A stretch of 64,000 nucleotides of DNA. Origin: Phycicoccus sonneratiae (GTDB taxonomy: Bacteria; Actinomycetota; Actinomycetes; Actinomycetales; Dermatophilaceae). The position numbers and the translations under genes are program-made. Below the pieces are notes generated by a model. The model made no database searches. It saw only the letters and a list, made by a program, of their open reading frames with translations, and was not told the DNA's origin. The stretch spans positions 62,001 through 126,000 of the forward strand of contig NZ_JAFDVD010000017.1 in the NCBI RefSeq assembly GCF_016887965.1. Reading direction: 5' to 3'. Below, piece after piece: positions 33,757-54,776 of the stretch; the first letter of the stretch is position 1; the number at the start of each line of letters is the position of its first letter.

Positions 33757-33858
33757 GGTTGCTGCTCCCGTGGTCGGTGGTGACCTCGGGGAGGCGTGAC
33801 CCCGCCGGCACCCGGACGCGAGCGACCGGACGTGGCGGGAGCACGCCTGAGATTCCCG

Positions 33859-33940: not shown

Positions 33941-34035
33941 GTTGGACGCGTCGAGCATACCCCCGTGCGGGCTAGGGTAACGAGACACCATCGGGCACAA
34001 CCGCTGTCCGGCCCCGACCCCCTGAGGAGCCACCC

Positions 34036-34320: not shown

Positions 34321-35523
34321 TCAGTCGAGCTCGAGGGCCCGGGCGATGGGCATCCCCGGCCGGTAGGCGAGGTGCTCGTGGCCCGGGGCGTCGAGGACCG
34401 CGAGGTCGGCGCGGGCACCGACGGCCACCCGCCCGACGTCGTCGCGCCGCAGCGCCCGGGCGCCGCCGACGGTCGCGGCCACGAGGGCCTCGGCGGCGGT
34501 CATCCGCAGCTCCCGCACGGCGAGGGCGACGACGAACGGCATCGACGCGGTGTTGCACGTCCCGGGGTTGCAGTCCGAGGCCAGCGCGACCGACACCCCG
34601 GCGGCGAGCAGCCGGCGGGCGTCGGGGTAGGGCATCCGGGTCGAGAACTCCACGCCCGGCAGGAGGGTCGCGACCGTGGTGTCGGCGGCCGCGGCGAGGT
34701 CGTCGACGTCGGTGTCGTCGAGGAAGGTGCAGTGGTCGACCGAGGCCGCGCCGAGCCCGACGGCCAGCCGGGCCCCCGGTCCGGGTCCGAGCTGGTTGCC
34801 GTGCACCCGCAGCCCGAGACCGGCGTCGCGCCCGGCGAGGAGCACCCGGCGGGCCTCCTCGCCGGTGAAGGCGTGCGGGCTGTTGGGCTCGCAGAAGACG
34901 TCGACCCAGCGGGCGAGCGGGGCGCAGGCGGCGAGCATCGGCCCGGTGACGAGGTCGAGGTAGGCGGCGCGGTCCTCGCGCGCCTCGGGCGGGACGACGT
35001 GGGCGCCGAGGAAGGTCGTCTCGTCGGTGACCTCGCGGGCCAGCCGGAGGCTGCGGACCTCGTCCTCGACGGTCAGCCCGTAGCCGCCCTTGACCTCGAG
35101 GGTCGTCGTGCCGAGGGCCCTCGCGTCGGCGACGCGGGCGGCCAGCAGGCCGCGCAGCTCGTCGTCGGTCGCGGCGCGGGTGGCGGCCACCGACACCCCG
35201 ATGCCGCCGCCGTCGTAGGGCGTGCCGGCCATCCGGGCGGCGAACTCGGCGGACCGGTCGCCGGCGAAGACGAGGTGGCTGTGGCTGTCGACGAACCCCG
35301 GGACGACCGCCCGGCCGCCGACGTCGAGGGCGTCGTCCGCCGCCGGGGCCTCCACCGCCGGCCCGACCCAGGCGACCCGCCCGTCCTCGACGACGACCGC
35401 CGCGTCGCGCACGACCCCGAGCCGCTCGGCGGCGGGCAGCGACCGGTCGGTGACGGGCGTGGCGCCGTCGGGGCCGGCGCACGTGACGAGCTCGGAGATG
35501 CCGGTGACGACCGTGCTGCTCAT
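34321..35523 (-). CDS. hutI: Imidazolonepropionase
   Basis: A 400-residue amidohydrolase that opens 4-imidazolone-5-propionate to N-formimino-L-glutamate, the third step of histidine breakdown. Seen motifs: metal-binding [13 protein letters not shown] (near residue 76), EVKGGYGL, the catalytic HGNQLG region, [10 protein letters not shown] and [10 protein letters not shown]. Length is normal. GGAGGT lies 6 bp before the ATG, and the start overlaps the hutF stop by ATGA, so translation is probably coupled. It is the last gene of the amidohydrolase-hutF-hutI operon and ends 9 bp from the convergent DUF4235 gene. Confidence 0.96.
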
Positions 35524-36845
35524 CGACGGACCTCCGAGATCGCCTCCACGAGAAGATGACCCACGTCGCCGAGCCGGTGCCGTCCCTCGCTGACGACGTG
35601 CTCGCCGCCGACGACGACATCCGTGACGTCGGCCGAGGTGGCGGCGTACAGCACCTGGTCGAGGGCGCAGCCGGCCGTGCGCGGGCTGTCGGTGCGCACG
35701 GCGACGAGGTCGGCGACGTGGTTGCTCGCGAGGATGCCGCCGTCGGGCCAGCCGAGCGAGTGGTAGCCGTCGAGCGTGCCCATGGCGAGCAGGTCGGTCG
35801 GGGTGAATCGTCCCCGCTCGAGGGTGGTCAGCCGCTCGTGCATCTCGACGCCGCGCACCTCCTCGAAGGGGTCGACGACCGCGTGCTGGTCCGAGCCGAC
35901 GGCGAGCCGGGCGCCGGCCTCGGCGAGCGCGCGGGCCGGGCCGATGCCGTCGGCGAGGTCGCGCTCGGTCGTCGGGCAGAAGACCGCGCAGGCGCCGGCC
36001 CCGCCGAGGAGCGTGACGTCGTCGTCGGTGAGGTGCGTGGCGTGGACGAGCGACGTCGTCCCGGACAGCAGCCCCTCGTCGGCGAGCAGCCGGGCCGGGG
36101 TGCGCCCGTAGAAGGACTCGCACGCGAGGTTCTCGCCGGGCTGCTCGGACAGGTGCGCGTGCAGCGGCCACTGCTCGCGGCGCGCGGCGTCACCGACGAG
36201 GGCGAGGTCGTCGCACGGCACGGCCCGCACCGAGTGCACCGCGGCGCCGACCCGCCAGGTCCCGCCCGGCCGCAGCGCGGCGACCCGCTCGAGCCAGGCC
36301 TCGGCCGAGCCGTCGGAGAACCGCTGCTGGACGTCGTCGAGGGGCAGGTGCCCGGAGCCGGTGAGCCCGCCCGCGAGGTAGACCGTGTCGAGCAGGGTGA
36401 GCCGGAGACCGGCCGCCGCCGCCGCCTCCACGAGCGCGGTGCCCATCGCGTTGGGGTCGTCGTAGGGACGCCCGCCGGGGCCGTGGTGGAGGTAGTGGAA
36501 CTCCCCGACGACCGTGTAGCCGGCGAGCACCATCTCGGCGAAGACGGCGGTCGCGAGCCGGCGGTAGGAGTCGGGGTCGAGGTGGTCGGCGAGGGCGTAC
36601 ATCCCGTCGCGCCACGTCCAGAAGTTGCCCTCCTCGCCGTGCGTGCGGCCGCGCAGGGCCCGGTGGAACGCGTGGCTGTGGGCGTTCGCGAGGCCCGGCA
36701 GCACGAGCCCGTGGAGGACGGTGTCCCCGGGCTCGATCGCGCTGTCGGAGAGCACTTCGACGATGCGGCCGTGGTCCGTGACCACCCGGACGTGGCGCCG
36801 CGCACCCCCGGGGAGCACCGCGTGCTCGCACCAGTACGTGGTCAT
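35520..36845 (-). CDS. hutF: Formimidoylglutamate deiminase
   Basis: A 441-residue amidohydrolase. [16 protein letters not shown] carries the first metal histidines (near residue 55), [11 protein letters not shown] and [11 protein letters not shown] the next ligands, and [11 protein letters not shown] the catalytic Asp region; this set is typical of HutF. It converts N-formimino-L-glutamate to N-formyl-L-glutamate plus ammonia, so this organism uses the two-step end of the Hut pathway and needs a deformylase afterwards. ATG overlaps the upstream amidohydrolase stop (ATGA), and its own stop overlaps the hutI start the same way. Confidence 0.94.
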
Positions 36846-38095
36846 GCAGCGGTCGGTCCCGCGAGGTCGGCGACGACGTCGGCGAGGGCCGCCACGCCGG
36901 TGAGGCAGTCGTCGGCCGAGGCCCATTCGTCCGGGCTGTGGCTGACGCCGGTCGGGTTGCGCACGAACAGCATCGCCGTGCTGAGGCCGGCGTTGGCGAG
37001 GATGCCGGCGTCGTGCCCGGCGCCGGTGCCGATGACCGGGGCGCCGTCGACGAGGCCGGCGAGCCGGGCGACGAGGGCGGGGTCGAAGTCGGTGCTCGGG
37101 GTCCACGACTCCTCGGTGACGAGGGCGTCGAACTCGCCCGCGACCTGGCTGACCTCGGTGACGACGCGGCGCACCGCCTCGGGGTCGCGGCCGCGCGCGT
37201 CGAGCCACCCGGTGGCGCAGCTGGCGATGGCGTTGACGCCACCCGGCACGACGTCGACCTTGCCGACGGTCGCGAGGCAGCCGTGCTCCTCGGCGGCCCG
37301 GCGAGCGGCGATGACGGTGGCGGCCAGCCCGAGCACGGCGTCCTCGCGGGCGTCGAGGGCGGTGGTGCCGGCGTGGTTGGCCTCCCCGGGCACGTCGATG
37401 CGCCAGCGGCCGTGCGGCCAGATGTCGCTGCCGATCCCGACCGCCTGCCCGAGGTGGTCGAGCACCCGGCCCTGCTCGACGTGGAGCTCGACGAAGGCGC
37501 CGACGCGCGCGAGCGTGGCGTCGTCGCGCCCGAGGTGGTGCGGCGTGCCGCCCGCCCGCTCGATCGCCTCGGCCATCGTCACGCCGTCGCGGTCCTTGAG
37601 GCCGCGGGCCCGGTCGGGGGACATCGCGCCGGTGATGACGCGGGAGCCGGCGCAGGCGACGCCGAAGCGCGCGCCCTCCTCGTCGCCGAAGTTCACGACG
37701 CCGATGGGCCGCTGCGGCCGGAAGCCCCGCTCGCGGAGGGCGTCGAGCGCGGCGAGGGCGCTGACGACGCCGAGCGGGCCGTCGAAGGCGCCGCCGTCCG
37801 GGACCGAGTCGAGGTGGGAGCCCACGACGACACCGGGGTCACCCGCCGCGACGGCCGCGTCGGGGTCGCCCCACCACGCCCACTGGTTGCCCATGAGGTC
37901 GGTCGTCAGGTCGAGGCCGCGCGCGGCGCACTCGCCGCCGAACCACTCGCGCAGGTCGTGGTCGGTGCGGGTCCACGCGAAGCGCCGGTAGCCCCCGGTG
38001 CCCGCGTCGAGCCCGACCGACTCGAGGTCGGCCCACATCCGTCGGAAGGCGAGCGTCGCCCCCGGAGATGCCGACCTGTTGGACATGTCGACCAT
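36842..38095 (-). CDS. AllC-like M20 amidohydrolase, candidate N-formylglutamate deformylase
   Basis: A 417-residue metallo-amidase of the allantoate amidohydrolase/N-carbamoyl amino acid hydrolase group. Metal and catalytic motifs are complete: GSHLDSVPDGGAFDG, FGDEEGARFG (Glu-Glu), VELHVEQG and the C-terminal GAGHDA. Homology alone would suggest an N-carbamoyl or ureido substrate. However, it is the first gene of the operon with hutF and hutI, joined by ATGA overlap, there is no ureide or hydantoin gene nearby, and no HutG is in the window. Hydrolysis of N-formylglutamate is therefore the likely role, as inference. GGGAG lies 8 bp before the ATG; a candidate hut operator lies 46 bp upstream. 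Confidence 0.88.
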   Translation of the reverse strand: MVDMSNRSASPGATLAFRRMWADLESVGLDAGTGGYRRFAWTRTDHDLREWFGGECAARGLDLTTDLMGNQWAWWGDPDAAVAAGDPGVVVGSHLDSVPDGGAFDGPLGVVSALAALDALRERGFRPQRPIGVVNFGDEEGARFGVACAGSRVITGAMSPDRARGLKDRDGVTMAEAIERAGGTPHHLGRDDATLARVGAFVELHVEQGRVLDHLGQAVGIGSDIWPHGRWRIDVPGEANHAGTTALDAREDAVLGLAATVIAARRAAEEHGCLATVGKVDVVPGGVNAIASCATGWLDARGRDPEAVRRVVTEVSQVAGEFDALVTEESWTPSTDFDPALVARLAGLVDGAPVIGTGAGHDAGILANAGLSTAMLFVRNPTGVSHSPDEWASADDCLTGVAALADVVADLAGPTAA

Positions 38096-38140
38096 TGCAC
38101 CAACTCCCGGGACCTCACGGGGTGGGAGGGACGAGCGATT

Positions 38141-38156
38141 GTCTCGGCGGGGAGAC
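38141..38156 (-). promoter_or_regulatory. Candidate hut operator upstream of the amidohydrolase-hutF-hutI operon
   Basis: GTCTCG-GCGG-GGAGAC, a 16-bp inverted repeat with one mismatch, 46 bp before the ATG at 38095. The same 6-4-6 pattern occurs before hutU and hutH. The divergent YbaK gene starts 49 bp to the other side. Confidence 0.65.
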
Positions 38157-38204
38157 GGGTGCGGCGAGCGGTCGTCGCACCGGGGGTGACCCTAGGCTGG
38201 TCCG

Positions 38205-38684
38205 ATGGACGACGGAGCCGACCGCGCCCGGCGGGCCCTCGCCGCCTCCGGCATCGCCTACGAGATCACGAGCCACGGCCGGGTCGGGTCACTCGAGGAG
38301 GCGGCCCGGCTGCGCGGGGTCGAGCCGGCGGGCATCGTCAAGACCCTCGTCGTCCGGCGGGCCGAGGACGACCACCTCTTCGTCCTCGTGCCGGGCGACC
38401 GCGAGATCTCCTGGCCCAAGCTGCGGGCCCACCTCGGGGTCAACCGGGTGTCGATGCCGGACGCCGCGGTGGCGCGGGACGTCACCGGGTACGAGCGCGG
38501 CACCATCACGCCGTTCGGGTCGCTGCGGGCCCTGCCGGTCGTCGCCGACGCGACGCTCACCGGGCGGACGGTCTCGATCGGGGCCGGTGCGCACGGCGTG
38601 GCGGCGACCGTGGGCGCCGACGCGCTCGTCGCCGTCCTCGACGCCGAGGTCGCCGACGTCACCGACCCCGTCACCCCCCGCTGA
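38205..38684 (+). CDS. YbaK/EbsC-family aminoacyl-tRNA deacylase
   Basis: 159 residues, full length for the single-domain YbaK/ProX/EbsC editing family that hydrolyses mischarged tRNAs such as Cys-tRNA(Pro) or Ala-tRNA(Pro). The signature Lys lies in GIVKTLVVR (near residue 46). The segments GDREISWPKLRAHLG and GYERGTITPFG are characteristic. It acts in the cytoplasm. ATG at 38205 lies 6 bp after CTGG and lacks a strong Shine-Dalgarno sequence. It interrupts the hut cluster on the opposite strand; I see no functional link to histidine metabolism. Confidence 0.88.
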   Translation: MDDGADRARRALAASGIAYEITSHGRVGSLEEAARLRGVEPAGIVKTLVVRRAEDDHLFVLVPGDREISWPKLRAHLGVNRVSMPDAAVARDVTGYERGTITPFGSLRALPVVADATLTGRTVSIGAGAHGVAATVGADALVAVLDAEVADVTDPVTPR

Positions 38685-38697
38685 CCCCCCGCCCTTT

Positions 38698-38777
38698 CCC
38701 GACTTCTTGCGAGTTCAGCCGCTCGACGCGCCCTCCGGACGGCGTGTCGGCGGCGGAACTCGCAACAAGTCGGCGGG
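38698..38777. repeat. Long inverted repeat (family E) in the YbaK/hutU convergent gap
   Basis: Arms GACTTCTTGCGAGTTC (38701-38716) and GAACTCGCAACAAGTC (38756-38771) pair over 16 bp with one mismatch around a 39-bp centre. It lies between the stops of two convergent genes and could be a bidirectional terminator or mRNA-stabilising hairpin. Confidence 0.7.
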
Positions 38778-38785
38778 GATGCGGG

Positions 38786-40444
<1,659 letters not shown>

Positions 40445-40519
40445 GTCGTGCTCCTTCGTCGTCGTCCATCCACTGTCGCGGCGGCGTCGGGCCGGGTGAA
40501 CCCCGGGCGGCGTGGACGC

Positions 40520-40535
40520 GTCTGGCATCCGAGAC
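40520..40535 (-). promoter_or_regulatory. Candidate hut operator upstream of hutU
   Basis: GTCTGG-CATC-CGAGAC, an inverted repeat with one mismatch, 76 bp before the hutU ATG and 85 bp before the divergent methyltransferase ATG. It matches the sites at 38141 and 43810. Confidence 0.65.
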
Positions 40536-40619
40536 GTGCCGGCGGCGGCAGGGTGGGCGGTGTTGCCGGAACGGCACGGGGATGCGGCGCGCCGGGCGGC
40601 ACCGGAGCAGACTCGGGCC

Positions 40620-41303
40620 ATGACGACGCACGACGCCCACCACACCTCCGGCCACGACCACGGCCCGGCCGTCCGCCACGAGCACGGGTACGCGCTGCGC
40701 GACGACGAGTCGGTGTGGGACGCCCGGTACTCCGAGCTCGACCGGGTGTGGAGCGGCGAGCCGAACCTCGCCCTCACCGTCGAGGCCGCGACGCTGGCAC
40801 CGGGTCGCGCGCTCGACGTCGGCTGCGGCGAGGGCGCCGACGCCGTGTGGCTCGCGACCCGCGGCTGGGAGGTCACCGCGCTCGACCCGTCCGGGGTCGC
40901 CCTGGCCCGGGCCCGCGCGGCCGCCGAGTCGGTGCGGGTGTCGGTGCGCTGGGTGCACGCGGGCCTCGCGGAGGCCGACCTGCCCGTCGGTGGCTTCGAC
41001 CTCGTCTCGGTGTTCTACCCCGCCCTCGACCTGGAGACCGGGCCGGTCGGGCGGCTCGCCTCGCTCGTCGCGCCGGGCGGGACGTTGCTCTTCGTCCACC
41101 ACGCCGAGGTCGACCGCGAGCGCGCGCTGGAGCACGGCTTCGACCCCGACCTGCTCCTCTCGCCGGAGGGGATGGCGGCCGGGCTCGGCGACGGGTGGTC
41201 GGTGACGGGGCCGGAGAAGCGGCCGCGCTCGGTCAGTGGCGGCGCGGGGGCGCACCACCACGACGACCTCGTCGTCCGGGCCGTCCGGACGACGGACACC
41301 TGA
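40620..41303 (+). CDS. Class I SAM-dependent methyltransferase with His-rich N-terminus
   Basis: 227 residues. The SAM-binding glycine motif [15 protein letters not shown] is near residue 63, the acidic end of strand 2 is VTALDPSG, and [14 protein letters not shown] forms strand 4. The overall form resembles TehB/thiopurine-type small-molecule methyltransferases. The first 25 residues hold about eight histidines ([12 protein letters not shown]), possibly a metal-binding tail. Upstream in-frame codons exist, but coding character begins with this ATG. The acceptor is unknown. It is divergent from hutU. Confidence 0.85.
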
Positions 41304-41342
41304 CGGACGCCCCTCGCCTGCCCGCCCCCGCGCCGCGAGTGG

Positions 41343-41681
41343 TCAGCGCCGCTCGGCGCGGGTCCGGAGGTCGTCGAGCCGGCGGTCCCAGGCCCGCGAC
41401 ACGGACGCCAACCAGTCGGCGCGGGCGGCCACGGCCTCGACGTCGACGGCGTAGAGCACGTCGCGCCCCTGCTTCGAGGTCCGGACGAGCCCGGCGTCCT
41501 CGAGCACGCGCAGGTGCCGGCTGACCGCCTGCCGGGTCACCGGCAGCGGGGCGGCGAGCCGCGTGGCCGTCGACGCACCGGTCGTCCCCAGGGTCGCGAG
41601 GAGGGTCAGCCGGGTGGCGTCGCCGAGCGCCGCGAAGACCGCGGCGTCGGCCGGCCCGACCGGCGGGGCGGACGTGCTCAC
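41343..41681 (-). CDS. ArsR-family helix-turn-helix repressor
   Basis: 112 residues with a winged HTH; recognition helix PVTRQAVSRHLRVLEDAGLVR followed by the wing KQGRDVLYAVD. No Cys is present, so it is not a classical thiol metal sensor. GTG start overlaps the stop of the SRPBCC gene (GTGA). ArsR-SRPBCC pairs are common in actinobacteria; the regulator usually represses its own operon. The palindrome at 42147-42172, just upstream of the pair, is the probable operator. Confidence 0.9.
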   Translation of the reverse strand: MSTSAPPVGPADAAVFAALGDATRLTLLATLGTTGASTATRLAAPLPVTRQAVSRHLRVLEDAGLVRTSKQGRDVLYAVDVEAVAARADWLASVSRAWDRRLDDLRTRAERR

Positions 41682-42130
41682 GCCGCGTGCCGGCCCTCGA
41701 GGTGCCGCTTGGCGACGGCGAGCTCGGTGTCCCAGCCCTCGGTGTTGTCGGCGACGGTCTTCAGGAGCTCGGCCTCGGACTCGTCGAGGGACTCGAAGCC
41801 GCTCTCGCGGACCCGCAGCGTCACCCCGCCCGGGCGGTCCTCGACCCAGAACTCGGTGAGGGTGCCGGGTCCGTCGACCGCGGGCTCGTCGGTGCGCGCC
41901 AGCCAGCGGAACGCGACGTAGCGCGGCTCCCGCTCCTCGACGACGACGAGGGGGAAGACGCCGTGGACGGGATCGGTCACGGTGACGACGCCGTCCGCGC
42001 GCCGCTCGACGACGTGCTCGACGTACTCACCGTCGTTGATCCACCAGCCGGGCTCGCTGACCAGCGGCCACACCTGCGCCGCGTCGGCGTCGATCTCGAT
42101 GCTCTTCTCGATGACGTGTCCCAGGTCCAC
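41678..42130 (-). CDS. SRPBCC (AHSA1/START-like) domain protein
   Basis: 150 residues forming one SRPBCC ligand-binding fold: IEKSIEIDADAAQVWPLVSE at the N-terminus, EFWVEDRPGGVTLRVRESGF in the central sheet and a C-terminal helix WDTELAVAKRHLEG. Members bind hydrophobic small molecules; the ligand is unknown. It is first in the operon with the ArsR regulator, which overlaps its stop. The GTG start at 42130 follows GAGGGA with almost no spacer, so the precise start is not certain. Confidence 0.85.
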   Translation of the reverse strand: MDLGHVIEKSIEIDADAAQVWPLVSEPGWWINDGEYVEHVVERRADGVVTVTDPVHGVFPLVVVEEREPRYVAFRWLARTDEPAVDGPGTLTEFWVEDRPGGVTLRVRESGFESLDESEAELLKTVADNTEGWDTELAVAKRHLEGRHAA

Positions 42131-42146
42131 TCCCTCGGTCGTCGAT

Positions 42147-42172
42147 TATGTGCAATATCAATGTTGCACATA
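42147..42172. promoter_or_regulatory. Probable ArsR operator: 26-bp palindrome in an A+T island
   Basis: Perfect 9-bp arms TATGTGCAA (42147-42155) and TTGCACATA (42164-42172) are separated by 8 bp. The segment is strikingly A+T-rich for this genome and ends 16 bp before the SRPBCC start, where a promoter is expected. Autorepression by the ArsR protein encoded in the operon is the simple reading. Confidence 0.75.
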
Positions 42173-42192
42173 TGAGCCGATCGGGCAAGGAG

Positions 42193-43755
42193 TCAGGCGA
42201 GGGGGCCGGTGTGCTCCTCGACGACGCGGCGCACCGTGCCGTCGGTGACGAGCCGGTGGGCCACCTCGATCTCGGGGGCGAGGAAGCGGTCGGGGCCGGG
42301 GGCGCCGGCCCCCGCGGCGACGAGGGCCTCGACGACGGCCCCGGTGGCGGGCGCCGGCTCGAGGGGGGCGCGCAGCTGCAGGCCGCGGGCCGCCGTCAGC
42401 ACCTCGACGGCGAGGACGCGGGCCAGGCCGTCGACCGAGCGCCGCAGCTTGCGGGCGCCGGACCACCCCATCGAGACGTGGTCCTCCTGCATGGCGCTGC
42501 TCGGGATGGAGTCGACCGAGGCCGGGGCGGCCTGGCGCTTCAGCTCCGAGACGATCGCGGCCTGCGTGTACTGGGCGATCATGTGGCCGCTGTCGACGCC
42601 GGGGTCGTCGGCGAGGAACGGCGGGAGGCCGTGGCTGCGCGAGACGTCGAGGAACCGGTCGGTGCGGCGCTCGGACATCGAGGCGAGGTCGGCCGCGACA
42701 ATGGCGAGGAAGTCGAGGACGTAGGCCACCGGTGCGCCGTGGAAGTTGCCGTTGCTCTCGACCCGGCCGTCGGGGGTGACGACCGGGTTGTCGACGGCGG
42801 AGGCGAGCTCGTTCGCCGCGACGCGGGCGGCGTGCTCGACGGTGTCGCGGGCGCCGCCGGCCACCTGCGGCGCGCACCGCAGCGAGTAGGCGTCCTGGAC
42901 GCGGGTGCACTCCTCGGTGCGGTGCGACTCGCGGATCGGGCTGTGCGCCATCACCTTCCGGATGTTCGCCGCGCTGACGGCCTGGCCGGGCTGGGGTCGG
43001 AGGGCGTGCAGGTCGGCGGCGAAGACGTCGTCGGTCCCGAGCAGGCCCTCGACGCTCATCGCGGCGGACACGTCGGCGACGACGAGCAGCTCGCGCAGGT
43101 CGTGCAGCGCGAGGCAGAGCATCCCGAGCATGCCGTCGGTGCCGTTGACGAGGGCCAGGCCCTCCTTCTCCTCGAGCTCGACGGGCGTGAGCCCGGCCAC
43201 GGCGAGGGCGTCGGCGGCGGGCACCCGGGTGCCGGTGGCGTCGCGGACCTCACCCTCGCCCATGAGCGCGAGCGCGCAGTGCGAGAGGGGCGCGAGGTCG
43301 CCGGAGCAGCCGAGCGAGCCGTACTCGTGGACGACCGGCGTGATGCCGGCGTCGAGCATGCCGGCGTACGTGCGCAGGGTCTCCTCACGGATGCCGGTGC
43401 GTCCGGTCGCGAGCGTGGCGACGCGCAGGAGCATCAGGGCGCGCACCACCTCGCGCTCGACTTCGGGGCCGGAGCCTGCGGCGTGGCTGCGGATGAGGCT
43501 GCGCTGCAACCGGTGTCGAAGGTCGACGGGGATGTGCCGGGTCGCGAGGGCCCCGAAACCGGTGGAGACGCCGTAGTGCGGCTGCGGGTCGTCGGCGAGC
43601 CCGCGGATGATCTCGCGGGTGCGGCGGACCTCGGCGAGCGCGCCGTCGTCGAGGACGACCGGGGCGTCGTGGCGGGCGACGGCGACGACGTCCTCGACGG
43701 TCAGCGGGCCGGCGCCGACGACGACGGGGGCGGCGGGCGAGGAGGCAGCGGTCAT
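42193..43755 (-). CDS. hutH: Histidine ammonia-lyase
   Basis: A 520-residue enzyme that deaminates L-histidine to urocanate. The MIO prosthetic-group motif is EYGSLGCSGDLAPLSH with the cyclising triad Cys150-Ser151-Gly152; many relatives have Ala-Ser-Gly. The active-site loop YGVSTGFGALA (about 61-71), QDAYSLRCAPQV and GNFHGAPVAYVLDF are intact. ATG at 43755 is preferred: it gives normal length and leaves the candidate operator at 43810-43825 upstream; GGAGGG lies very close to it. An ATG at 43806 is a less likely alternative. It ends 62 bp before the SRPBCC-ArsR operon, with the ArsR palindrome between. Confidence 0.95.
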   Translation of the reverse strand: MTAASSPAAPVVVGAGPLTVEDVVAVARHDAPVVLDDGALAEVRRTREIIRGLADDPQPHYGVSTGFGALATRHIPVDLRHRLQRSLIRSHAAGSGPEVEREVVRALMLLRVATLATGRTGIREETLRTYAGMLDAGITPVVHEYGSLGCSGDLAPLSHCALALMGEGEVRDATGTRVPAADALAVAGLTPVELEEKEGLALVNGTDGMLGMLCLALHDLRELLVVADVSAAMSVEGLLGTDDVFAADLHALRPQPGQAVSAANIRKVMAHSPIRESHRTEECTRVQDAYSLRCAPQVAGGARDTVEHAARVAANELASAVDNPVVTPDGRVESNGNFHGAPVAYVLDFLAIVAADLASMSERRTDRFLDVSRSHGLPPFLADDPGVDSGHMIAQYTQAAIVSELKRQAAPASVDSIPSSAMQEDHVSMGWSGARKLRRSVDGLARVLAVEVLTAARGLQLRAPLEPAPATGAVVEALVAAGAGAPGPDRFLAPEIEVAHRLVTDGTVRRVVEEHTGPLA

Positions 43756-43809
43756 CCCTCCATTGGAGGGCCGGCCGGTCGGCGCGACCACCGACCGGAG
43801 CGGCATCCT

Positions 43810-43825
43810 GTCTCGCACCCGAGAC
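43810..43825 (-). promoter_or_regulatory. Candidate hut operator upstream of hutH
   Basis: GTCTCG-CACC-CGAGAC, a perfect 6-4-6 inverted repeat, 54 bp before the hutH ATG. It is the best of the three related sites in the hut locus. Confidence 0.7.
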
Positions 43826-43870
43826 CTCCGGGGCCCGGGCCCTTCCGTCGCGCACCCCCGCACCACACGC

Positions 43871-43952
43871 GTATCGGGTGACCCGACAACCCTGCGCTTC
43901 ACCCGGGAACGGTTCCGGGGTGAAGCGCGGCCGTATCGGGTGACCCGATACG
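43871..43952. repeat. Palindromic element (family C), copy 1
   Basis: Three parts: GTATCGGGTGACCCGA (43871-43886); a long hairpin with arms GCGCTTCACCC and GGGGTGAAGCGC around GGAACGGTTCC (43894-43928); and a 21-bp palindrome CGTATCGGGTGACCCGATACG (43932-43952). The hairpin and second palindrome recur nearly unchanged at 63038-63097. It lies downstream of the ABC exporter and upstream of hutH. Confidence 0.85.
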
Positions 43953-43976
43953 CGTGAGATCCGAGGGGTAAGGCGC

Positions 43977-45875
43977 TCAGGCGGGGACGGGTGCGTCCTC
44001 GGCCGCGGCGACGAGGCCCGCGTACCGGCCGCCGAGGGCGAGCAGCTCCTCGTGCGTCCCCGACTCGACGACCCGCCCGGCGTCGAGCACCGCGATGCGG
44101 TCGGCCCGGCGGACCGTCGACAGCCGGTGGGCGATGGTGATGGTCGTCCGGCCCCGGGCCAGCTCGTCGAGTGCCGCCTGGAGCGCCCGCTCGGTGGCGG
44201 TGTCGAGGGCCGAGGTCGCCTCGTCGAGGACGAGGACCGGCGGGTCGCGGAGGATGGTGCGCGCCACGGCCAGCCGCTGCTGCTCACCGCCGGAGAACCG
44301 GTGGCCGCGTGCCCCGACGACGGTGTCGAGCCCGTCCGGCAGCGACGCCACGAGGTCGGCGACCTGCGCGGCCGCCAGGGCCCGCCACAGCTCGGCCTCG
44401 GTCGCGTCCGGCCGAGCGAGCAGCAGGTTGTCGCGCACCGACGCGTGCACGAGGTAGCTCTCCTGCGACACCGTGCCGACGACGGCCGCGAGCACCTCGG
44501 GGTCGAGGTCGCGGACGTCGACGCCGTCGACCGTCACGCGCCCGGCGTCGGGGTCGTGGAGGCGGGCCAGCAGCCCGGCCAGCGTCGACTTCCCGGACCC
44601 GGTGGCCCCGACGAGGGCCAGCGTGGAGCCGGCCGGCACCCCGAGGGTCACGTCGGAGACGGCGTCGCGGTCCGAGCCCGGGTAGCGCACGCTCACGCCG
44701 TCCAGCCGCACCTCGCCCGACACGAGCGACGGCTCGAGCGGCACCGGGTGGGCCGGCGCCGGGACGTCCGGGACGAGGTCGAGGTACTCGAAGACCCGCG
44801 AGAACAGGGCCATCGAGGCGACCCACTGCGCCCCGACGTTCAGCAGCCCCATGAGCGGCCGGAAGATGCCGCCCTGCAGCGCGGTGAACGCGACGAGCGT
44901 GCCGATGGTCATCGACCCCGACGTGGCCGGCAGCCCGGCGGCGAGGTAGACCAGCGCCGGGATGACGGCGAAGACGATCTGCATCGTCGCCATCCGCCAC
45001 CGGCCGGCCAGCTGGGAGCGCAGCTCCAGGCCCACGAGGTCCGACGATGTCGACGAGAACCGTTCGGCCGCAGCCCGACCCGTGCCGAGTGTCTTGGCGA
45101 GGCGCACGCCGCTGACCGACAGGCCCTCCTCGATCTGGGCGTTGAGGTCGGCGAGCCGCCGCTGCTGCTGGGCGGTGACCTCACGGCGCAGCAGCGCCAC
45201 GCGGCGGGTCAGCCACAGCGCCGGCGGCACGACGAGGAGGGAGAGCAGCGAGAGCCGCCAGGAGAGGGCGACCATCGCGACGGCGGTGGCGACGGCGGTC
45301 GTGACGTTCGAGGCGATGGACGTGGCGGTCGAGGTGACGACGCCCTGCATGCCGCCGACGTCGTTGACGAGCCGCGACTGCACCTCGCCGCCGCGGGTGC
45401 GGGTGAAGAAGCCGAGCGACTGGCGCTGGAGGTGGGTGAAGACCTTGGTGCGCAGGCCGTGCATGACGCGCTGGCCGACCTGCGTCGACAGCCAGGTCTG
45501 GACGACGCCGAGCAGCTGGGTGACGGCCGCGACCGCGACCATCGCCGCAACGGCGAGGACGAGGAGGCGCACGTCCTGCTGCGGGAGCGCCACGTCGACG
45601 ACCTCGCGCACGAGGAACGGCTGGGCGAGACCGACGATGCTCGTGACGACGATGATCGCCACGACGACGGAGATCCGGGCGCGGTGCGGTCGGAAGAGGG
45701 CGAGCACGCGGGAGAGGCGCACGGGCGCCTCCTCGAGCCGGGCGCGGTCGCGGGGGTCGACGGTCATCGCGCCGCCGCGCCCACCACCACGGCCTCCGCC
45801 GTGGGTCGGTCCGGTCACGGGCGCGGGGTCGGAGGCGCGGGAACGGGTGGGGGTCTGGGTCGGGGCCGCTGTCAC
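43977..45875 (-). CDS. ABC exporter, fused membrane and ATPase domains
   Basis: A 632-residue half-transporter that would work as a homodimer. The six-helix exporter membrane domain spans about residues 65-340, starting RISVVVAIIVVTSIVGLAQPF. The nucleotide-binding domain follows: Walker A VGATGSGKST, Q-loop VSQESYLVHAS, signature FSGGEQQRLAVAR, Walker B VLVLDEATSALD and H-loop IAHRLST, all intact. The Gly-rich N-terminal leader is unusual. GTG at 45875 is favoured over 45881 because AAGGAGG then has a 7-bp spacer. It is divergent from a MarR regulator over a palindrome, so its substrate may be the inducer. Confidence 0.93.
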   Translation of the reverse strand: MTAAPTQTPTRSRASDPAPVTGPTHGGGRGGGRGGAMTVDPRDRARLEEAPVRLSRVLALFRPHRARISVVVAIIVVTSIVGLAQPFLVREVVDVALPQQDVRLLVLAVAAMVAVAAVTQLLGVVQTWLSTQVGQRVMHGLRTKVFTHLQRQSLGFFTRTRGGEVQSRLVNDVGGMQGVVTSTATSIASNVTTAVATAVAMVALSWRLSLLSLLVVPPALWLTRRVALLRREVTAQQQRRLADLNAQIEEGLSVSGVRLAKTLGTGRAAAERFSSTSSDLVGLELRSQLAGRWRMATMQIVFAVIPALVYLAAGLPATSGSMTIGTLVAFTALQGGIFRPLMGLLNVGAQWVASMALFSRVFEYLDLVPDVPAPAHPVPLEPSLVSGEVRLDGVSVRYPGSDRDAVSDVTLGVPAGSTLALVGATGSGKSTLAGLLARLHDPDAGRVTVDGVDVRDLDPEVLAAVVGTVSQESYLVHASVRDNLLLARPDATEAELWRALAAAQVADLVASLPDGLDTVVGARGHRFSGGEQQRLAVARTILRDPPVLVLDEATSALDTATERALQAALDELARGRTTITIAHRLSTVRRADRIAVLDAGRVVESGTHEELLALGGRYAGLVAAAEDAPVPA

Positions 45876-45906
45876 GGGCACCCCTCCTTCCGGTCGGGTC
45901 GTGTTA

Positions 45907-45921
45907 GTGAGGCTACCTCAC
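45907..45921. promoter_or_regulatory. Palindrome between ABC exporter and MarR gene, probable MarR operator
   Basis: GTGAGG-CTA-CCTCAC, a perfect 6-3-6 repeat, with weaker extension to TTxGTGAGG/CCTCACxAT. It lies in the 84-bp divergent region, where a MarR dimer could repress both genes. Confidence 0.6.
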
Positions 45922-45959
45922 AATGAGGCAAACGCACGAGTCGGCGGTAGCATTCCCCC

Positions 45960-46397
45960 GTGCGCCCACGCGACGACACCCCTGCCGCCGACCTCGACCT
46001 CGGCGACCTCGTGATGCGCGTCGCCCGCGACCTGCGGCGCACCGGCATGACCGCCTACGAGCCCTACGACCTGGCGCCCCACCACGCCCGCGCGCTGCGG
46101 GTCGTCGGGCACCACGGGACGATGCGGCTCGGCGAGCTGGCCCAGCACCTGCGGGTGGCGCCCCGGTCGGTCACCGACGTCGTCGACGCGCTCGAGGAGC
46201 GGGGCCTGGCCGAACGCTCGCCCGACCCGACCGACCGGCGGGCCCAGGTCGTCGGGCTGACGGACGCGGGCCGACGTCTCGTCGACGAGGTCGACGCGGC
46301 TCGACGCACCGGCGCCGAGGCGTACTTCGGACGGCTGCCCGAGCGCGACCGCGCGAGCCTGCGCCGCATCCTCGAGCGCCTCGACGCCACCGACTGA
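45960..46397 (+). CDS. MarR-family transcriptional regulator
   Basis: 145 residues with the MarR winged helix: MRLGELAQHLRVAPRSVTDV (HTH), DALEERGLAERSPDPTDRRA (wing, with the family DRR signature) and a C-terminal dimerisation helix. It probably represses itself and the divergent ABC exporter through the palindrome at 45907-45921. No clear Shine-Dalgarno sequence precedes GTG at 45960; TAGCAT lies 6 bp before it, which would fit a leaderless transcript. An ATG further in would remove conserved N-terminal helix residues. Confidence 0.9.
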   Translation: MRPRDDTPAADLDLGDLVMRVARDLRRTGMTAYEPYDLAPHHARALRVVGHHGTMRLGELAQHLRVAPRSVTDVVDALEERGLAERSPDPTDRRAQVVGLTDAGRRLVDEVDAARRTGAEAYFGRLPERDRASLRRILERLDATD

Positions 46398-46436
46398 CCG
46401 CCGGCGCGGTGTCCGTCCGCGTCGACGACCCCGACC

Positions 46437-46508
46437 TGCCGGAACCTTCAGCGACCTGCCTCTTGCAACCGGCAGGCGGCTGAAGGTTCCGGCATCCGGA
46501 GAGAAAGT
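46437..46508. repeat. Palindromic element (family B), copy 1
   Basis: Perfect 16-bp arms TGCCGGAACCTTCAGC (46437-46452) and GCTGAAGGTTCCGGCA (46479-46494) enclose a smaller stem CCTGCC/GGCAGG with TTGCAAC in its loop. A non-palindromic tail ATCCGGAGAGAAAGT follows. The same element, tail included, occurs at 55537-55607. It fills the convergent gap between the MarR and RraA-like genes. Confidence 0.88.
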
Positions 46509-46514
46509 GGGGCG

Positions 46515-46994
46515 TCAGGGGCGGGTGACGAGGAGGCCGTCCTCGTCGGCCCAGAGCGTCGCGCCGGGCACGAACTCGACGCCGCCGAACCCCACCGGCT
46601 CGTCGCGCTCGCCCACGCCGTCCTTCGCGGACTTGCGCGGGTTCGACCCGAGGGCCAGCACGCCGAGCGGCAGCTCGCCGAGGGCCACGACGTCACGCAC
46701 CGCCCCGTGGATGACGACGCCGGCCCAGCCGTTGGCCACCGCGGACCCGGCGATGAGGTCGCCCATGAGCGCCGACTCCAGCGACCCGCCACCGTCGACG
46801 ACGAGCACCCGCCCCTCCCCCGGCTCGGCCAGCACGGTCTTGACGAGGGCGTTGTCGCGGTGGCAGTGCACCGTGCTGATCGGCCCGCTGAAGCGCGCCA
46901 CCCCTCCGTAGGAACGGAACTGGGTCGAGCACGACTGCAGCGTCTCACCGTGCTCGTCGTAGAGGTCGGCGGTCGTGAAGTCCTCGGTGCTCAT
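46515..46994 (-). CDS. RraA-like protein with aldolase motif (HMG aldolase/oxaloacetate decarboxylase type)
   Basis: 159 residues of the RraA/MenG fold ([35 protein letters not shown]). It carries Asp79, then exactly 20 residues, then Arg100-Asp101: the D-X20-R-D metal and substrate motif of 4-hydroxy-4-methyl-2-oxoglutarate aldolases, which also decarboxylate oxaloacetate. RNase E inhibitor RraA of E. coli lacks it. Together with its place as last gene of the tricarboxylate transport operon, this favours a metabolic enzyme over an RNase regulator (inference). GGAGGAGG lies just before the ATG, which also overlaps the usp stop (ATGA). Confidence 0.88.
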
Positions 46995-49511: not shown

Positions 49512-49512
49512 G

Positions 49513-50620: not shown

Positions 50621-52342
50621 GTGGTCACGCGCAGACGCCGTCGCGCGACGCTGGCCGGGCAGCTCTTCGCGCTGCAGCTGGCCATCATCGTCGTCGTGCT
50701 CGTCGCCGTCGCCGCCGTGTCGCTCGCCCAGTCCGCGGCGACCTTCGAGCGCACCGAGGGCCGGCGGGTGTCGGCGCTCGGGGAGCAGCTGGCGTCCAAC
50801 CCGCTCGTCCGCGCCAACCTCGACCAGCCCGAGACGCGCACCGGGCTCGCGACGCTCGGGCTCTCGCTCGTCGCGCAGGCCAACATCACGTCGGTGAGCT
50901 TCGCCGAGCCCGACCTCGACGTCCGCGTCTCGACCGACCCCTCCCTCGAGGACCGCCCCCTGACGCTCGGCGACCCGCGCGTGGCCTCCGGCGGCAGCTG
51001 GTCCGGGACGCTCGTCCTCGACGGGCGCGAGTACATCGCCTCGCAGGTCCCGGTGCTCGCCGGCGACGACGACGACAAGGACCCCTCGACCCCGACCCGC
51101 GCCGGGCAGCTGCTCGGCACCGTGATGGTCGCCGAGCAGGCGCCGTCGACGTGGGAACGGCTGCAGGGCACCAGCTCCTATTTGCTCACCTACCTCGGCA
51201 TCGCGCTCGTCGTCGGGCTCGGGGGCTCGTGGCTGCTGTCCCGCCGGATCAAGCGGCAGACCCGCGGGATGGAGCCGCGCGAGATCGCCGGGCTCGCCGA
51301 GCACCGCGAGGCGATGCTGCGCGGCATCGCGGAGGGGGTCATCGCCCTCGACCCGCAGCACCGCATCACCCTCGTCAACGAGGTCGCGCGCCAGCTGCTC
51401 GACCTGCCCGAGCACGCCATCGGGACGTCGGTCTCCGACCTGCGCATCGAGGGCCGGCTGCGCGAGGTGCTCGTCGGCGAGAACGCCCGCCCGAGAACCG
51501 ATCTCGACCCGGACGACCACGTGACGGCTGCGCGTGACGAGGTCGTCGTCCGGCGTGGGAGGGTGCTCGTCATGAGCACGATGCGCGTCGTCAGCGGCGA
51601 CCGCGTCCTCGGCACCGTGACGACGATGCGCGACCGGACGGCGCTGGCCGACCTCGAGCGCGAGATCGGGTCGTTCCGCTCGACCGCGCACGTGCTCCGG
51701 GCCCAGGCGCACGAGTTCGCCAACCAGCTGCACACCATCAGCGGGCTCATCGAGATCGGCGAGCTCGACGAGGTCGTCCGCTACGTCGACGCCGTCAGCC
51801 AGCGCCGCAACGCGCTCGACATCACCCTCAACTCGCTCCTCGGCGACCCCACCATCGCCGCGCTGCTCATGGCCAAGGTGGCCACCGCGAACGAGCGCAG
51901 GGTCGATCTCGAGGTCACCGACGACTCGCGGCTCGAGCGGCTCGAGACCGCCGATGCCGCCGACGTCGCGACGGTGCTCGGCAACCTCGTCGACAACGCC
52001 CTCGAGCACGCACCGCGTGGAGCCCAGCGGCCGCCGGAGGTCCGCGTGCGCATCCGGCAGGACGCGAGCACGGTCGAGATCGTCGTCACCGACTCCGGGC
52101 CGGGCGTCCCGGACGACCTGCGCGCCTCGCTCTTCGAGCACGGGGTGACCTCGAAGCGCGTCGACCCCACCGCCCACGGGGTCGGCCTGGCGCTGACCCG
52201 CCTGGTCTGCCGACGGCGCGGCGGCGAGATCGAGGTCGACCGGGTCGAGGACCGGACCCGGTTCGTCGCCCGGCTCGGGGTGTCGACATTCGTCGAGCCG
52301 GACGAGGCGGAGGCCGCGGTCGGCGAGGGGGTGCGCCGGTGA
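50621..52342 (+). CDS. CitA/DcuS-type sensor histidine kinase
   Basis: A 573-residue membrane kinase. TM1 is about residues 14-36, an extracytoplasmic sensor (PDC-type) domain about 37-185, TM2 about 188-210, a cytoplasmic PAS about 225-330, then the DHp helix with phosphoacceptor His in RAQAHEFANQLHTISGLIE. The ATPase N-box is NLVDNALEHA, the G1 box TDSGPGVP and the G2 box HGVGLALTR. CitA/DcuS relatives sense citrate, tricarballylate or C4-dicarboxylates, which fits the divergent tct operon. Its stop overlaps the response regulator start (GTGA). Confidence 0.93.
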   Translation: MVTRRRRRATLAGQLFALQLAIIVVVLVAVAAVSLAQSAATFERTEGRRVSALGEQLASNPLVRANLDQPETRTGLATLGLSLVAQANITSVSFAEPDLDVRVSTDPSLEDRPLTLGDPRVASGGSWSGTLVLDGREYIASQVPVLAGDDDDKDPSTPTRAGQLLGTVMVAEQAPSTWERLQGTSSYLLTYLGIALVVGLGGSWLLSRRIKRQTRGMEPREIAGLAEHREAMLRGIAEGVIALDPQHRITLVNEVARQLLDLPEHAIGTSVSDLRIEGRLREVLVGENARPRTDLDPDDHVTAARDEVVVRRGRVLVMSTMRVVSGDRVLGTVTTMRDRTALADLEREIGSFRSTAHVLRAQAHEFANQLHTISGLIEIGELDEVVRYVDAVSQRRNALDITLNSLLGDPTIAALLMAKVATANERRVDLEVTDDSRLERLETADAADVATVLGNLVDNALEHAPRGAQRPPEVRVRIRQDASTVEIVVTDSGPGVPDDLRASLFEHGVTSKRVDPTAHGVGLALTRLVCRRRGGEIEVDRVEDRTRFVARLGVSTFVEPDEAEAAVGEGVRR

Positions 52343-53010
52343 TCCGGGTGCTCGTCGTCGACGACGACTTCATGGTCGCCCGCATCCACGTCGGGTTCGT
52401 CGAGCGGGTCGACGGTTTCGAGGTCGTCGGCACCGCATCCACCGGGGCCGAGGCGGTGCGTGCCGTCGAGGAGCTGCGCCCCGACCTCCTGCTCCTCGAC
52501 CTCTACCTGCCCGACCGGTTCGGGCTCGACCTGCTCGCCGAGCTGCGCGCCGGTCCGCACCCGTGTGACGCGATCGTCATCACCGCCGCCAAGGAGAGCG
52601 AGTCGGTGCGCTCGGCCGTGCGGCTCGGGGTCGCCGACTACGTCCTCAAGCCCTTCGGGTTCCCCGACCTCGAGGAGCGCCTGCGCCGCTACGCCGCGCA
52701 GCGGGCGGTGCTCGAGCGGGCCGAGGTCGTCGGCCAGGACGACGTCGACCGGGTCTTCAGCCGGGTGTCGGCCGGCGGCGCGGTGGTCCTCCCCAAGGGC
52801 CTCAGCCCGGAGACCGCCCGGCTCGTCGAGGGCACCCTGTCCGGGGCGGGCGGCACCCTGTCGGCGAGCGAGGTGGCCGAGGGGGTCGGGATCTCGCGGG
52901 TCAGCGCGCGCCGCTACCTCGAGCACTTCGTCGCGGTCGGCCGGGCCGACGTGCGCCTGCGGTACGGGTCGACCGGCCGGCCCGAGCGGCTCTACCGGTG
53001 GACGGGCTGA
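52339..53010 (+). CDS. CitB/DctR-type response regulator
   Basis: 223 residues. Receiver domain with acidic pocket VVDDD (residues 6-10), phosphoacceptor Asp in LLLLDLYLPD near residue 55, Thr in VITAAKE and Lys in YVLKPFGFPDL. The C-terminal HTH (LSASEVAEGVGISRVSARRYLEH) is that of the CitB/DcuR class. It should activate tctC-tctB-tctA across the divergent 100-bp region. It is translationally coupled to the kinase by GTGA. Confidence 0.93.
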   Translation: MIRVLVVDDDFMVARIHVGFVERVDGFEVVGTASTGAEAVRAVEELRPDLLLLDLYLPDRFGLDLLAELRAGPHPCDAIVITAAKESESVRSAVRLGVADYVLKPFGFPDLEERLRRYAAQRAVLERAEVVGQDDVDRVFSRVSAGGAVVLPKGLSPETARLVEGTLSGAGGTLSASEVAEGVGISRVSARRYLEHFVAVGRADVRLRYGSTGRPERLYRWTG

Positions 53011-53795: not shown

Positions 53796-54776
53796 ATGCA
53801 GGCCATCACCATCCCCACGCCCGGAGGGCCGGAGGCCCTCGTCCTCGCCGACGTCGACGCGCCGGAGCCGCGAGCGGGCGAGGTGCTCGTCCGGGTGGCC
53901 GCGGCGGGGGTCAACCGGGCGGACTCGATGCAGCGCCAGGGCTTCTACCCGCCGCCTCCGGGTGAGTCGGAGGTGCCGGGGCTCGAGGTGAGCGGCGTCA
54001 TCGAGGCGCTCGGCGAGGGGGTCGAGGCCTGGTCGGTCGGCGACGAGGTGTGCGCGCTGCTCGCCGGAGGCGGGTACGCCGAGCTCGTCCGGGTGCCGGT
54101 GGGGCAGCTGCTGCCCGTGCCGCGCGGGGTGTCCCTCGCCGACGCCGCCGCCCTGCCCGAGGTGGTGTGCACGGTGTGGTCCAACGTCTTCCTCACCGCG
54201 AACCTCCAGCCGGGCGAGGTGCTCCTCGTCCACGGCGGCTCGTCGGGCATCGGGACGATGGCCATCCAGCTCGCGAAGGCGGTCCGCGCGACGGTGGCGG
54301 TGACCGCCGGCTCGGCGGAGAAGCTGGAGGCCTGTCGCTCGCTCGGCGCCGAGGTGCTCGTCAACTACCGCGAGGAGGACTTCGTCGAGCGGGTGCGCGA
54401 GGCCACGGGCGGGCACGGCGCCGACGTCGTGCTCGACAACATGGGGGCGAAGTACCTCGGCCGCAACGTCGACGTGCTCGCCGTCAACGGGCGGCTCGTC
54501 GTCATCGGCATGCAGGGCGGGCGCGTCGGCGAGCTCGACCTCGGCGCGCTGCTGGCCAAGCGCGGGGCGGTCATCGCGACGTCGCTGCGGGCCCGGCCGG
54601 CCGCGGAGAAGGCGGCCATCGTCGCGGCCGTGCGGGAGCACGTGTGGCCGCTCGTCGAGGACGGCGTGGTGCGGCCGGTGGTGCACTCCCGGCACCCGCT
54701 GGCCGCCGCGGCCGACGCGCACCGCGAGCTCGAGGAGAGCGGGCACGTCGGCAAGATCCTGCTCACCCTCGGGTGA
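53796..54776 (+). CDS. NAD(P)H-quinone oxidoreductase, zinc-free MDR family (PIG3-like)
   Basis: 326 residues. GroES-like domain first (AGVNRADSMQRQGFYPPPPG, residues about 38-57, a PIG3/QOR signature), then a Rossmann domain with HGGSSGIGTMAIQLAK as NADPH-binding loop near 147. No structural or catalytic zinc ligands are seen. Predicted one- or two-electron reduction of quinones using NADPH, in the cytosol. ATG lies 20 bp after the IclR stop, so it may be co-transcribed. Confidence 0.92.
   Translation: MQAITIPTPGGPEALVLADVDAPEPRAGEVLVRVAAAGVNRADSMQRQGFYPPPPGESEVPGLEVSGVIEALGEGVEAWSVGDEVCALLAGGGYAELVRVPVGQLLPVPRGVSLADAAALPEVVCTVWSNVFLTANLQPGEVLLVHGGSSGIGTMAIQLAKAVRATVAVTAGSAEKLEACRSLGAEVLVNYREEDFVERVREATGGHGADVVLDNMGAKYLGRNVDVLAVNGRLVVIGMQGGRVGELDLGALLAKRGAVIATSLRARPAAEKAAIVAAVREHVWPLVEDGVVRPVVHSRHPLAAAADAHRELEESGHVGKILLTLG

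What the first reader, a model, noticed from the sequence alone, without database searches (positions are those of the whole stretch)
38141..43825. One 16-bp inverted repeat precedes all three hut transcription units
Upstream of hutH (43810, GTCTCG-CACC-CGAGAC), hutU (40520, GTCTGG-CATC-CGAGAC) and the amidohydrolase-hutF-hutI operon (38141, GTCTCG-GCGG-GGAGAC) the same 6-4-6 palindrome occurs 46-76 bp before each start codon. The half-site GTCTSG is kept while the centre varies, as expected of a protein-binding site. This defines a candidate hut regulon operator for this lineage. The regulator is not adjacent; the IclR gene at 53014 is one candidate because corynebacterial hut genes use an IclR regulator.
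Basis: partly seen in the sequence, partly recalled or inferred. Interest (0 to 1): 0.75.

Follow-up and report, generated by a model that had tools for sequence, protein, structure and literature searches.

The report
HutR operators of histidine-breakdown genes
A short mirror-image DNA sequence in front of each histidine-breakdown gene set is very probably the docking site of HutR, a regulator already known from corynebacteria, and its nearly constant distance to the promoter in related bacteria suggests that HutR switches these genes on.

Summary
The three palindromes are real and not chance: the pattern occurs at 5 places in the 4.1-Mb genome, 3 before hut units and 2 inside unrelated ORFs. 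They match the published HutR (IclR family) motif of Corynebacterium resistens. The IclR gene at 53014 is the HutR orthologue by tree, recognition helix, synteny and co-occurrence: 52 of 54 hutH-positive family genomes carry it, 0 of 5 hutH-negative. The two hutR-less hutH genomes lack the site.

Corrections: the centre is not free. AT is kept in 41 of 45 sites at 80 hutU loci; this genome's hutH and amidohydrolase sites deviate, and the latter is weak.

New here: the palindrome lies about 42 nt before a -10-like box (within one base in 38 of 42 family and 21 of 45 other promoters), putting the operator near -62.5 of a predicted, often leaderless start. This fits activation better than repression. 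hutU carries an operator mainly where it is split from hutH; two NCS1-type permease genes carry one too.

A new member of a known kind with a testable promoter architecture. No binding or expression was tested.

The parts
43810..43825 (-). HutR operator of hutH, GTCTCGGGTGCGAGAC read toward hutH; centre GT instead of AT
   Evidence: (score 16.4)
43762..43767 (-). predicted -10 box of hutH (TCCAAT, starts 43 nt after the operator); T at 43790 in the -35 place; predicted leaderless start at 43755
   Evidence: inferred, no start site mapped
42193..43755 (-). hutH, histidine ammonia-lyase
   Evidence: NCBIfam TIGR01225
40520..40535 (-). HutR operator of hutU, GTCTCGGATGCCAGAC, full consensus with AT centre
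   Evidence: score 24.9
40472..40477 (-). hutU box at the same spacing (GACAGT), a poor match to the -10 consensus
38786..40444 (-). hutU, urocanate hydratase
   Evidence: NCBIfam TIGR01228
38141..38156 (-). weak HutR operator of the amidohydrolase-hutF-hutI unit, GTCTCCCCGCCGAGAC
   Evidence: (score 4.0)
38094..38099 (-). predicted -10 box TGCAAT of the amidohydrolase unit (spacing one base shorter); suggests the true start codon is ATG 38086 rather than 38095
   Evidence: inferred
36842..38095 (-). M20-type amidohydrolase, named allantoate amidohydrolase by NCBIfam
   Evidence: NF006770 over cut-off
35520..36845 (-). hutF, formimidoylglutamate deiminase
   Evidence: TIGR02022 / NF006681
34321..35500 (-). 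hutI, imidazolonepropionase (start codon approximate)
   Evidence: TIGR01224
53014..53775 (+). hutR orthologue, IclR-family regulator, 253 aa, recognition helix LPRSSVYHLL
53796..54776 (+). quinone oxidoreductase (PIG3 family) next to hutR; also within 1.5 kb of hutR in half of the family loci looked at
50621..53010 (+). sensor kinase and response regulator directly upstream of hutR; lie between hutH and hutR here

Best explanation
The palindromes are operators for HutR, an IclR-family regulator (taken to act as a dimer) encoded at 53014-53775. HutR binds a 16-bp site GTCTSGNATNCSAGAC before separately transcribed hut units. The operator lies at a nearly fixed distance upstream of a weak promoter: a lone conserved T in the -35 place and a T-T/G-N-N-A-T -10 box that begins 43 nt after the operator. 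The operator centre is therefore near -62.5 from the predicted start, which is often the A of the ATG. From this position HutR most likely recruits RNA polymerase when histidine or urocanate is present (class-I-like activation). In relatives where hutR is divergent from hutH the same site may also hold down hutR itself. In this genome hutR is about 9 kb away because other genes lie in between. Shown: sites, spacing, orthology, co-occurrence. Inferred: binding, activation, ligand, start sites.
For: Published HutR motif GTCTGWWATWCCAGAC has the same 16-bp frame; that exact consensus hits 3 of 394 class genomes, all 3 beside a hut gene and a HutR-like gene. The IclR tree puts the window gene inside the hut-linked clade, sister to the Intrasporangium and Humibacillus copies (100/99), at 62-64% identity to its four best hits; the other five own IclRs reach 28-34%. 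Of the six own IclRs only the window one has the PRSS.YHLL helix. hutR is in 52 of 54 hutH-positive and 0 of 5 hutH-negative family genomes (Fisher 4e-6); the two hutR-less hutH genomes have no site before hutH. 31 of 32 consensus sites in 25 of 59 genomes lie at hut genes, reversed control 0. Spacing: T...AT at +43 in 27 of 42 family promoters and 16 of 45 promoters of the 80-locus set; largest pile-up in 300 shuffles 4 in each. Operator plus spacing plus box finds 41 sites in 38 of 394 genomes, control 0; 28 of the 30 loci fetched are at hut genes. hutU carries its own operator in 4 of 5 genomes with a hutH-hutU gap over 500 nt (the exception, G011, lacks hutR) and in 1 of 25 with a gap of 249 nt or less.
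Against: No binding, start-site or expression data. The own genome itself gives 0 matches to the strict composite pattern: its hutH and amidohydrolase centres deviate and its hutU box is poor. The own amidohydrolase site scores 4.0, and 21 of 30 family amidohydrolase upstreams have no site over threshold. 10 of 52 family hutH upstreams are under threshold: two without hutR, two with a strong site elsewhere at the hut genes, six with weaker palindromes. 24 of 45 promoters of the 80-locus set lack even the relaxed box within one base of +43. 7 of 37 loci with a HutR gene lack the strict 16-mer. Position 2 of the box is rarely A (8%), unusual for a sigma-A promoter (recalled). Two of the 52 hutR matches (G025, G038) contain an in-frame TGA. 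The C. resistens HutR protein could not be compared.
Confidence: 0.77

Rival explanations
1. The sites are HutR operators, but HutR is a repressor that leaves the DNA when histidine or urocanate is present.
For: Members of the IclR family act as activators and/or repressors (title of the Molina-Henares 2006 review, seen in the reference list of PMC13273656). Sites that overlap a divergent hutR promoter would suit autorepression.
Against: The operator ends about 19 nt before the -35 place, and its distance to the -10 box is kept within one base in 38 of 42 family rows and 21 of 45 others. A repressor does not need such fixed spacing and commonly sits on or after the promoter (recalled).
Confidence: 0.22
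2. Another regulator (GntR/HutC, LacI or another IclR) binds these palindromes and IclR 53014 controls something else.
For: hutR is not adjacent here and starts 4 nt behind a two-component gene pair. No GntR or LacI search was made.
Against: Tree, helix, synteny with the quinone oxidoreductase gene (15 of 30 loci, own included) and co-occurrence single out IclR 53014. In the 80 hutU loci HutR and the 16-mer go together: 30 with both, 7 HutR only, 4 motif only, 39 neither; Fisher 3e-11. One of the 30 (L012) has its match away from the hut genes.
Confidence: 0.04
3. Chance palindromes or transcript hairpins in GC-rich DNA.
For: Two of the five genome matches are inside unrelated ORFs; with two mismatches the window holds fewer matches than shuffles (61 against 139).
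Against: The five exact strand-matches were not reached in any of 100 shuffles. The sites recur before hut genes over family and class with zero hits for the reversed patterns. They lie upstream of the predicted transcript.
Confidence: 0.01

Closest known systems
HutR of Corynebacterium resistens DSM 45100 (IclR family; Schroeder et al. 2012, not held; known here only from passages of PMC8222616 and PMC3350403)
   Same: IclR family, hut genes as targets, same 16-bp frame GTCTS-N6-SAGAC with AT centre
   Different: There the hut genes form one cluster that contains hutR and use HutG; here three units, HutF plus an amidohydrolase, hutR about 9 kb off, C as well as G at the fifth base, degenerate centres in two sites
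HutC (GntR family) of Pseudomonas
   Same: Controls hut genes
   Different: Different protein family; described as a repressor in the abstract of PMC12977541 (search listing); its motif was not compared
Class I activated promoters (CRP at -61.5; recalled)
   Same: Operator centre about -62.5, -35 reduced to one conserved T, fixed spacing
   Different: No contact with RNA polymerase shown; different protein family

Membership tests
HutR (IclR family) | IclR helix-turn-helix and IclR C-terminal effector domain | tested here: met
   PF09339 and PF01614 over cut-off in window:53014-53775
HutR (IclR family) | Falls in one clade with IclR genes that sit near hut genes | tested here: met
   98/98 clade of 39 rows including the window gene; sister to Intrasporangium and Humibacillus copies at 100/99
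HutR (IclR family) | Recognition helix of that clade (lPRSs.YHLL) | tested here: met
   Window gene LPRSSVYHLL; none of the five other own IclRs
HutR (IclR family) | Operator like GTCTGWWATWCCAGAC upstream of hut genes | tested here: met
   Same frame at all three; only the hutU site has the AT centre, hutH and amidohydrolase sites deviate there
HutR (IclR family) | Gene lies in the hut cluster | tested here: not met
   9.3 kb from hutH here; within 2 kb in 36 of 52 family genomes. A matter of gene order, which does not decide orthology
HutR (IclR family) | Sequence similarity to the C. resistens HutR protein itself | not tested
HutR (IclR family) | Binds the operator; responds to histidine or urocanate | not testable with these tools
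   Needs gel shift and reporter
Class-I-type activator | Operator near -61.5 at fixed spacing from the -10 box | tested here: inconclusive
   Box at +43 well above shuffles, but the start site is predicted, not mapped, and 24 of 45 rows of the 80-locus set lack the box
Class-I-type activator | Transcription depends on the bound regulator | not testable with these tools
   Needs a deletion strain
GntR-type HutC regulation | GntR/HutC gene tied to the hut genes | not tested
   No GntR search of the genome was made

The most novel reading that the evidence does not exclude
Many Actinomycetes share one fixed hut promoter design: a HutR operator centred near -62.5 on a weak, often leaderless promoter that HutR must activate. 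Operators appear where hut genes split into new units, hutR itself can drift away from the cluster, and in some lineages the regulon takes in an NCS1-type permease (PF02133) as a probable histidine or urocanate importer.
Probability: 0.55. Interest if true: 0.5.

Novelty: new member of a known kind. Interest (0 to 1): 0.42.

Why it matters
It assigns a regulator and its operator to histidine catabolism in many Actinomycetes; in the papers searched the only experimental study I saw cited is on one Corynebacterium. It gives a composite signature (operator, spacer, -10 box) that is specific though not sensitive: 28 of 30 fetched hits are at hut genes, but only 38 of 394 class genomes have one. 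It makes the activator-or-repressor question a simple reporter test and points to a candidate transporter.

Tried and rejected
Chance or hairpin: rejected. The other five own IclR genes as regulator: rejected by tree and helix. Further regulon members in the own genome: 16 places lie within two mismatches of GTCTSGNATNCSAGAC (reversed control 9); two are the hutU and hutH sites, and the amidohydrolase site is not among them. Of the 14 others I looked at 12 by reading ORFs (L092-L097, L099-L102, L004, L005); L098 and C32:124334 were not looked at. Most of the 12 lie inside ORFs; L092, L094 and L096 may be between genes. I recognised no hut-like neighbour but ran no family search on them, so further targets are not excluded. 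The consensus site G002:C25:39476 lies inside an ORF away from hut genes; unexplained. A second IclR clade near hutU in 8 loci was searched for a shared palindrome before hutU without success. The 2012 HutR paper is not held, so its own verdict on activation or repression was not seen. PMC9413887 on histidine regulation in Gram-positives (term search and one passage) has 0 occurrences of HutR or IclR. That the operator-to-promoter spacing is unpublished rests only on searches (listings) and passages of PMC8222616; its supplement, which lists sites, could not be read here.

Limits of the matrix: its 37 training sites were picked with fixed arms, so only the six central columns are informative. 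Eight of 45 sites were dropped before building it: L006, L007 (two), L009, L049 as close relatives, L074 (two) and L012; three of those eight lack the AT centre. L015 was kept as another family but is probably a member of the window's family (its contig length equals that of G048), so it is also one of the 45 'other' rows; other rows were not checked for family. One search ignored strand and is void; one search replaces it. together tested 52 of 54 hutH-positive genomes; G014 and G041, where hutH follows or lies apart from hutU, were read separately and have a strong site before hutU (27.5 and 26.7). hutU was tested in 30 of 54 and the amidohydrolase in 30 of 44 genomes with a match.

Full report
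What is there. The window carries three hut units on the minus strand: hutH (43755-42193), hutU (40444-38786) and amidohydrolase-hutF-hutI (38095 to 34321), named from NCBIfam matches. Each has a 16-bp palindrome upstream at the coordinates given. Exact matches to the pattern are at 3 places in the window and 5 in the genome; the two extra places are inside ORFs that read as a PAS kinase and a serine dehydratase.

Which protein. PMC8222616 Table 1 (passage read) gives the HutR motif of Corynebacterium resistens as GTCTGWWATWCCAGAC, the same frame. PMC3350403 (passages read) says that all corynebacterial hut clusters compared there contain hutR, an IclR-type gene. The own genome has six IclR matches. 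A tree with the IclR genes found in 80 hutU loci puts, of the six, only the window gene at 53014 in the hut-linked clade, and only it has the clade's recognition helix PRSS.YHLL. In 15 of 30 family loci, own included, the quinone oxidoreductase gene that follows hutR in the window is also within 1.5 kb of hutR; the two-component genes in front of hutR were seen in 5 of 30, own included, and in one of these (G001) only the regulator gene fell in the stretch. hutR lies within 2 kb of hutH in 36 of 52 family genomes and 9.3 kb away here. So hutR probably sits at its old place beside the oxidoreductase, with other genes now between it and hutH.

Co-occurrence. Of 59 family genomes, 54 have hutH and 52 of those have the hutR orthologue (at least 48% identity, E at most 5e-61; in the genomes counted as lacking it the best match is E 4e-22 or weaker). 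None of the 5 without hutH has it, among them a genome of the same genus (Fisher 4e-6); two of those five are under 80% complete, and two of the 52 matches contain an in-frame TGA. The two genomes with hutH but no hutR (G011, G036) have no site before hutH (best 2.4 and -9.3). In the 80 hutU loci, HutR and the strict 16-mer occur together in 30 (one of them, L012, away from the hut genes), HutR alone in 7, motif alone in 4, neither in 39 (Fisher 3e-11). The 4 motif-only loci are on short contigs or near contig ends. Related genomes are not independent, so these values are rough.

The motif. Of 45 sites with the outer frame in the 80 hutU loci, 41 have AT in the centre. A matrix from 37 of them scores the own sites 24.9 (hutU), 16.4 (hutH) and 4.0 (amidohydrolase); 2400 random coding segments give 3.5 at 99% and 11.1 at 99.9%. 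The consensus GTCTSGNATNCSAGAC occurs 32 times in 25 of 59 family genomes, 31 of them within about 170 bp of a hut gene or hutR (positions compared by eye), and the reversed control 0 times. A site over threshold lies before hutH in 42 of 52 family genomes tested (25 of 30, 17 of 22). Of the ten others, two lack hutR; G013 has a strong site before hutU (18.6) and G043 before hutR and hutU; six (G008, G009, G030, G034, G045, G056) show weaker palindromes (0.5 to 8.3).

Operons that split gain operators. hutU has its own operator in G000, G001, G007 and G012, where 907-4317 nt separate it from hutH, not in hutR-less G011 (648 nt), and in only 1 (G051) of 25 genomes with 249 nt or less. The amidohydrolase unit has one in 9 of 30. 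Of 25 genomes tabulated, it is absent in all 5 where the gene follows hutU within 142 nt; of 20 with 478 nt or more, 8 have a site over threshold, 3 (own included) a weak one and 9 none, so the rule is loose there. The own weak site is 45 nt before ATG 38095; by ungapped extrapolation the strong sites of G017 and G012 and the fair one of G044 are at 45, 46 and 45 nt, while other strong sites range from 17 to 70 nt.

Promoter geometry. Aligned on the palindrome, hut promoters show a second element at a fixed place: T...AT starts 43 nt after the operator in 27 of 42 family rows and at 44 in 9, and at 43 in 16 of 45 rows of the 80-locus set; the largest pile-up in 300 shuffles is 4. With T...[AT]T and one base of slack it is 38 of 42 and 21 of 45. 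It stays there where the start codon is further away (hutU of G012, amidohydrolase of G032), so it is not the start codon itself. Over 87 rows T+20 is 62%, T+43 69%, A+47 66%, T+48 77%, A+55 59%. I read this as a -10 box, a remnant -35 at 17 bp and a start near +55, often the A of the ATG. The operator centre is then near -62.5, clear of the polymerase core sites, as in class I activation (recalled comparison). Activation is inferred. In the own genome the hutH box is TCCAAT, the amidohydrolase box TGCAAT with one base less spacing, and the hutU box GACAGT, a poor match. For the amidohydrolase this suggests ATG 38086 as start.

Reach. Operator plus 41-43 nt plus TNNNATGG occurs 41 times in 38 of 394 class genomes, reversed control 0, and not in the own genome, whose sites deviate. 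Of 41 hits 30 loci were fetched: 28 lie at hutH, hutU or the amidohydrolase, one before an NCS1-type permease (L270, PF02133) and one before an alcohol dehydrogenase (L256). A second PF02133 permease follows a HutR site in a Nocardioides jejuensis hut cluster (L021). The genome of L270 shares its genus handle with a genome whose hutH promoter is identical to that of Nocardioides silvaticus (L050 and G418), so it is probably a Nocardioides too.

Verdict. It is a HutR operator set of known kind; the fixed spacing, the split-operon pattern and the permease are the parts I did not find in the papers searched, but the supplement that lists sites could not be read. Confidence: HutR operators about 0.93, activation about 0.75, the amidohydrolase site working about 0.6.

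Noticed in passing
L021:13558-13573 and L270 (site near 1552): HutR-type operator with the spaced -10 box before NCS1-type permeases (PF02133), candidate histidine or urocanate importers.
   Followed up: partly
L028:4675, L038:8088, L046:9250, L055:8963, L056:3001, L068:9041, L073:9211, L082:5856: A second, distinct IclR clade in hut loci of Microbacteriaceae and Micrococcaceae, in most of them just upstream of hutU; no strict HutR 16-mer in these eight loci and no shared palindrome found before hutU. May be a different hut regulator.
   Followed up: partly
window 36842-38095: First gene of the hutF-hutI operon is an M20 amidohydrolase named allantoate amidohydrolase; in this place it may remove the formyl group of N-formylglutamate in place of HutG (idea only).
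   Followed up: no
window 43977-53010: About 9 kb lies between hutH and hutR, ending in a sensor kinase (best NCBIfam match DcuS/MalK family, below cut-off) and response regulator directly before hutR; similar pairs precede hutR in G032, G030 and G044, and the regulator gene in G001.
   Followed up: partly
L108, L123 (hutH upstream of G030, G017) and G366:C3:341560: An inverted repeat GGTATGCCG...CGGCATACC follows the operator directly in some genomes, and a half AGTATGCCG in a few more; role unknown.
   Followed up: no
window 43870-43956: A palindrome TATCGGGTGACCCGATA and a near copy flank an inverted repeat GCGCTTCACC...GGTGAAGCGC between the ABC transporter gene and hutH (read).
   Followed up: no
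window 33844-33947: TPP riboswitch on the minus strand, 68 bits.
   Followed up: no
G008, G045, G009, G056 (hutH upstream): Here the half-sites before hutH have shifted to forms such as GTCCCA and ATCCCA at 53-57 nt from the aligned start, perhaps a lineage change in HutR specificity.
   Followed up: no
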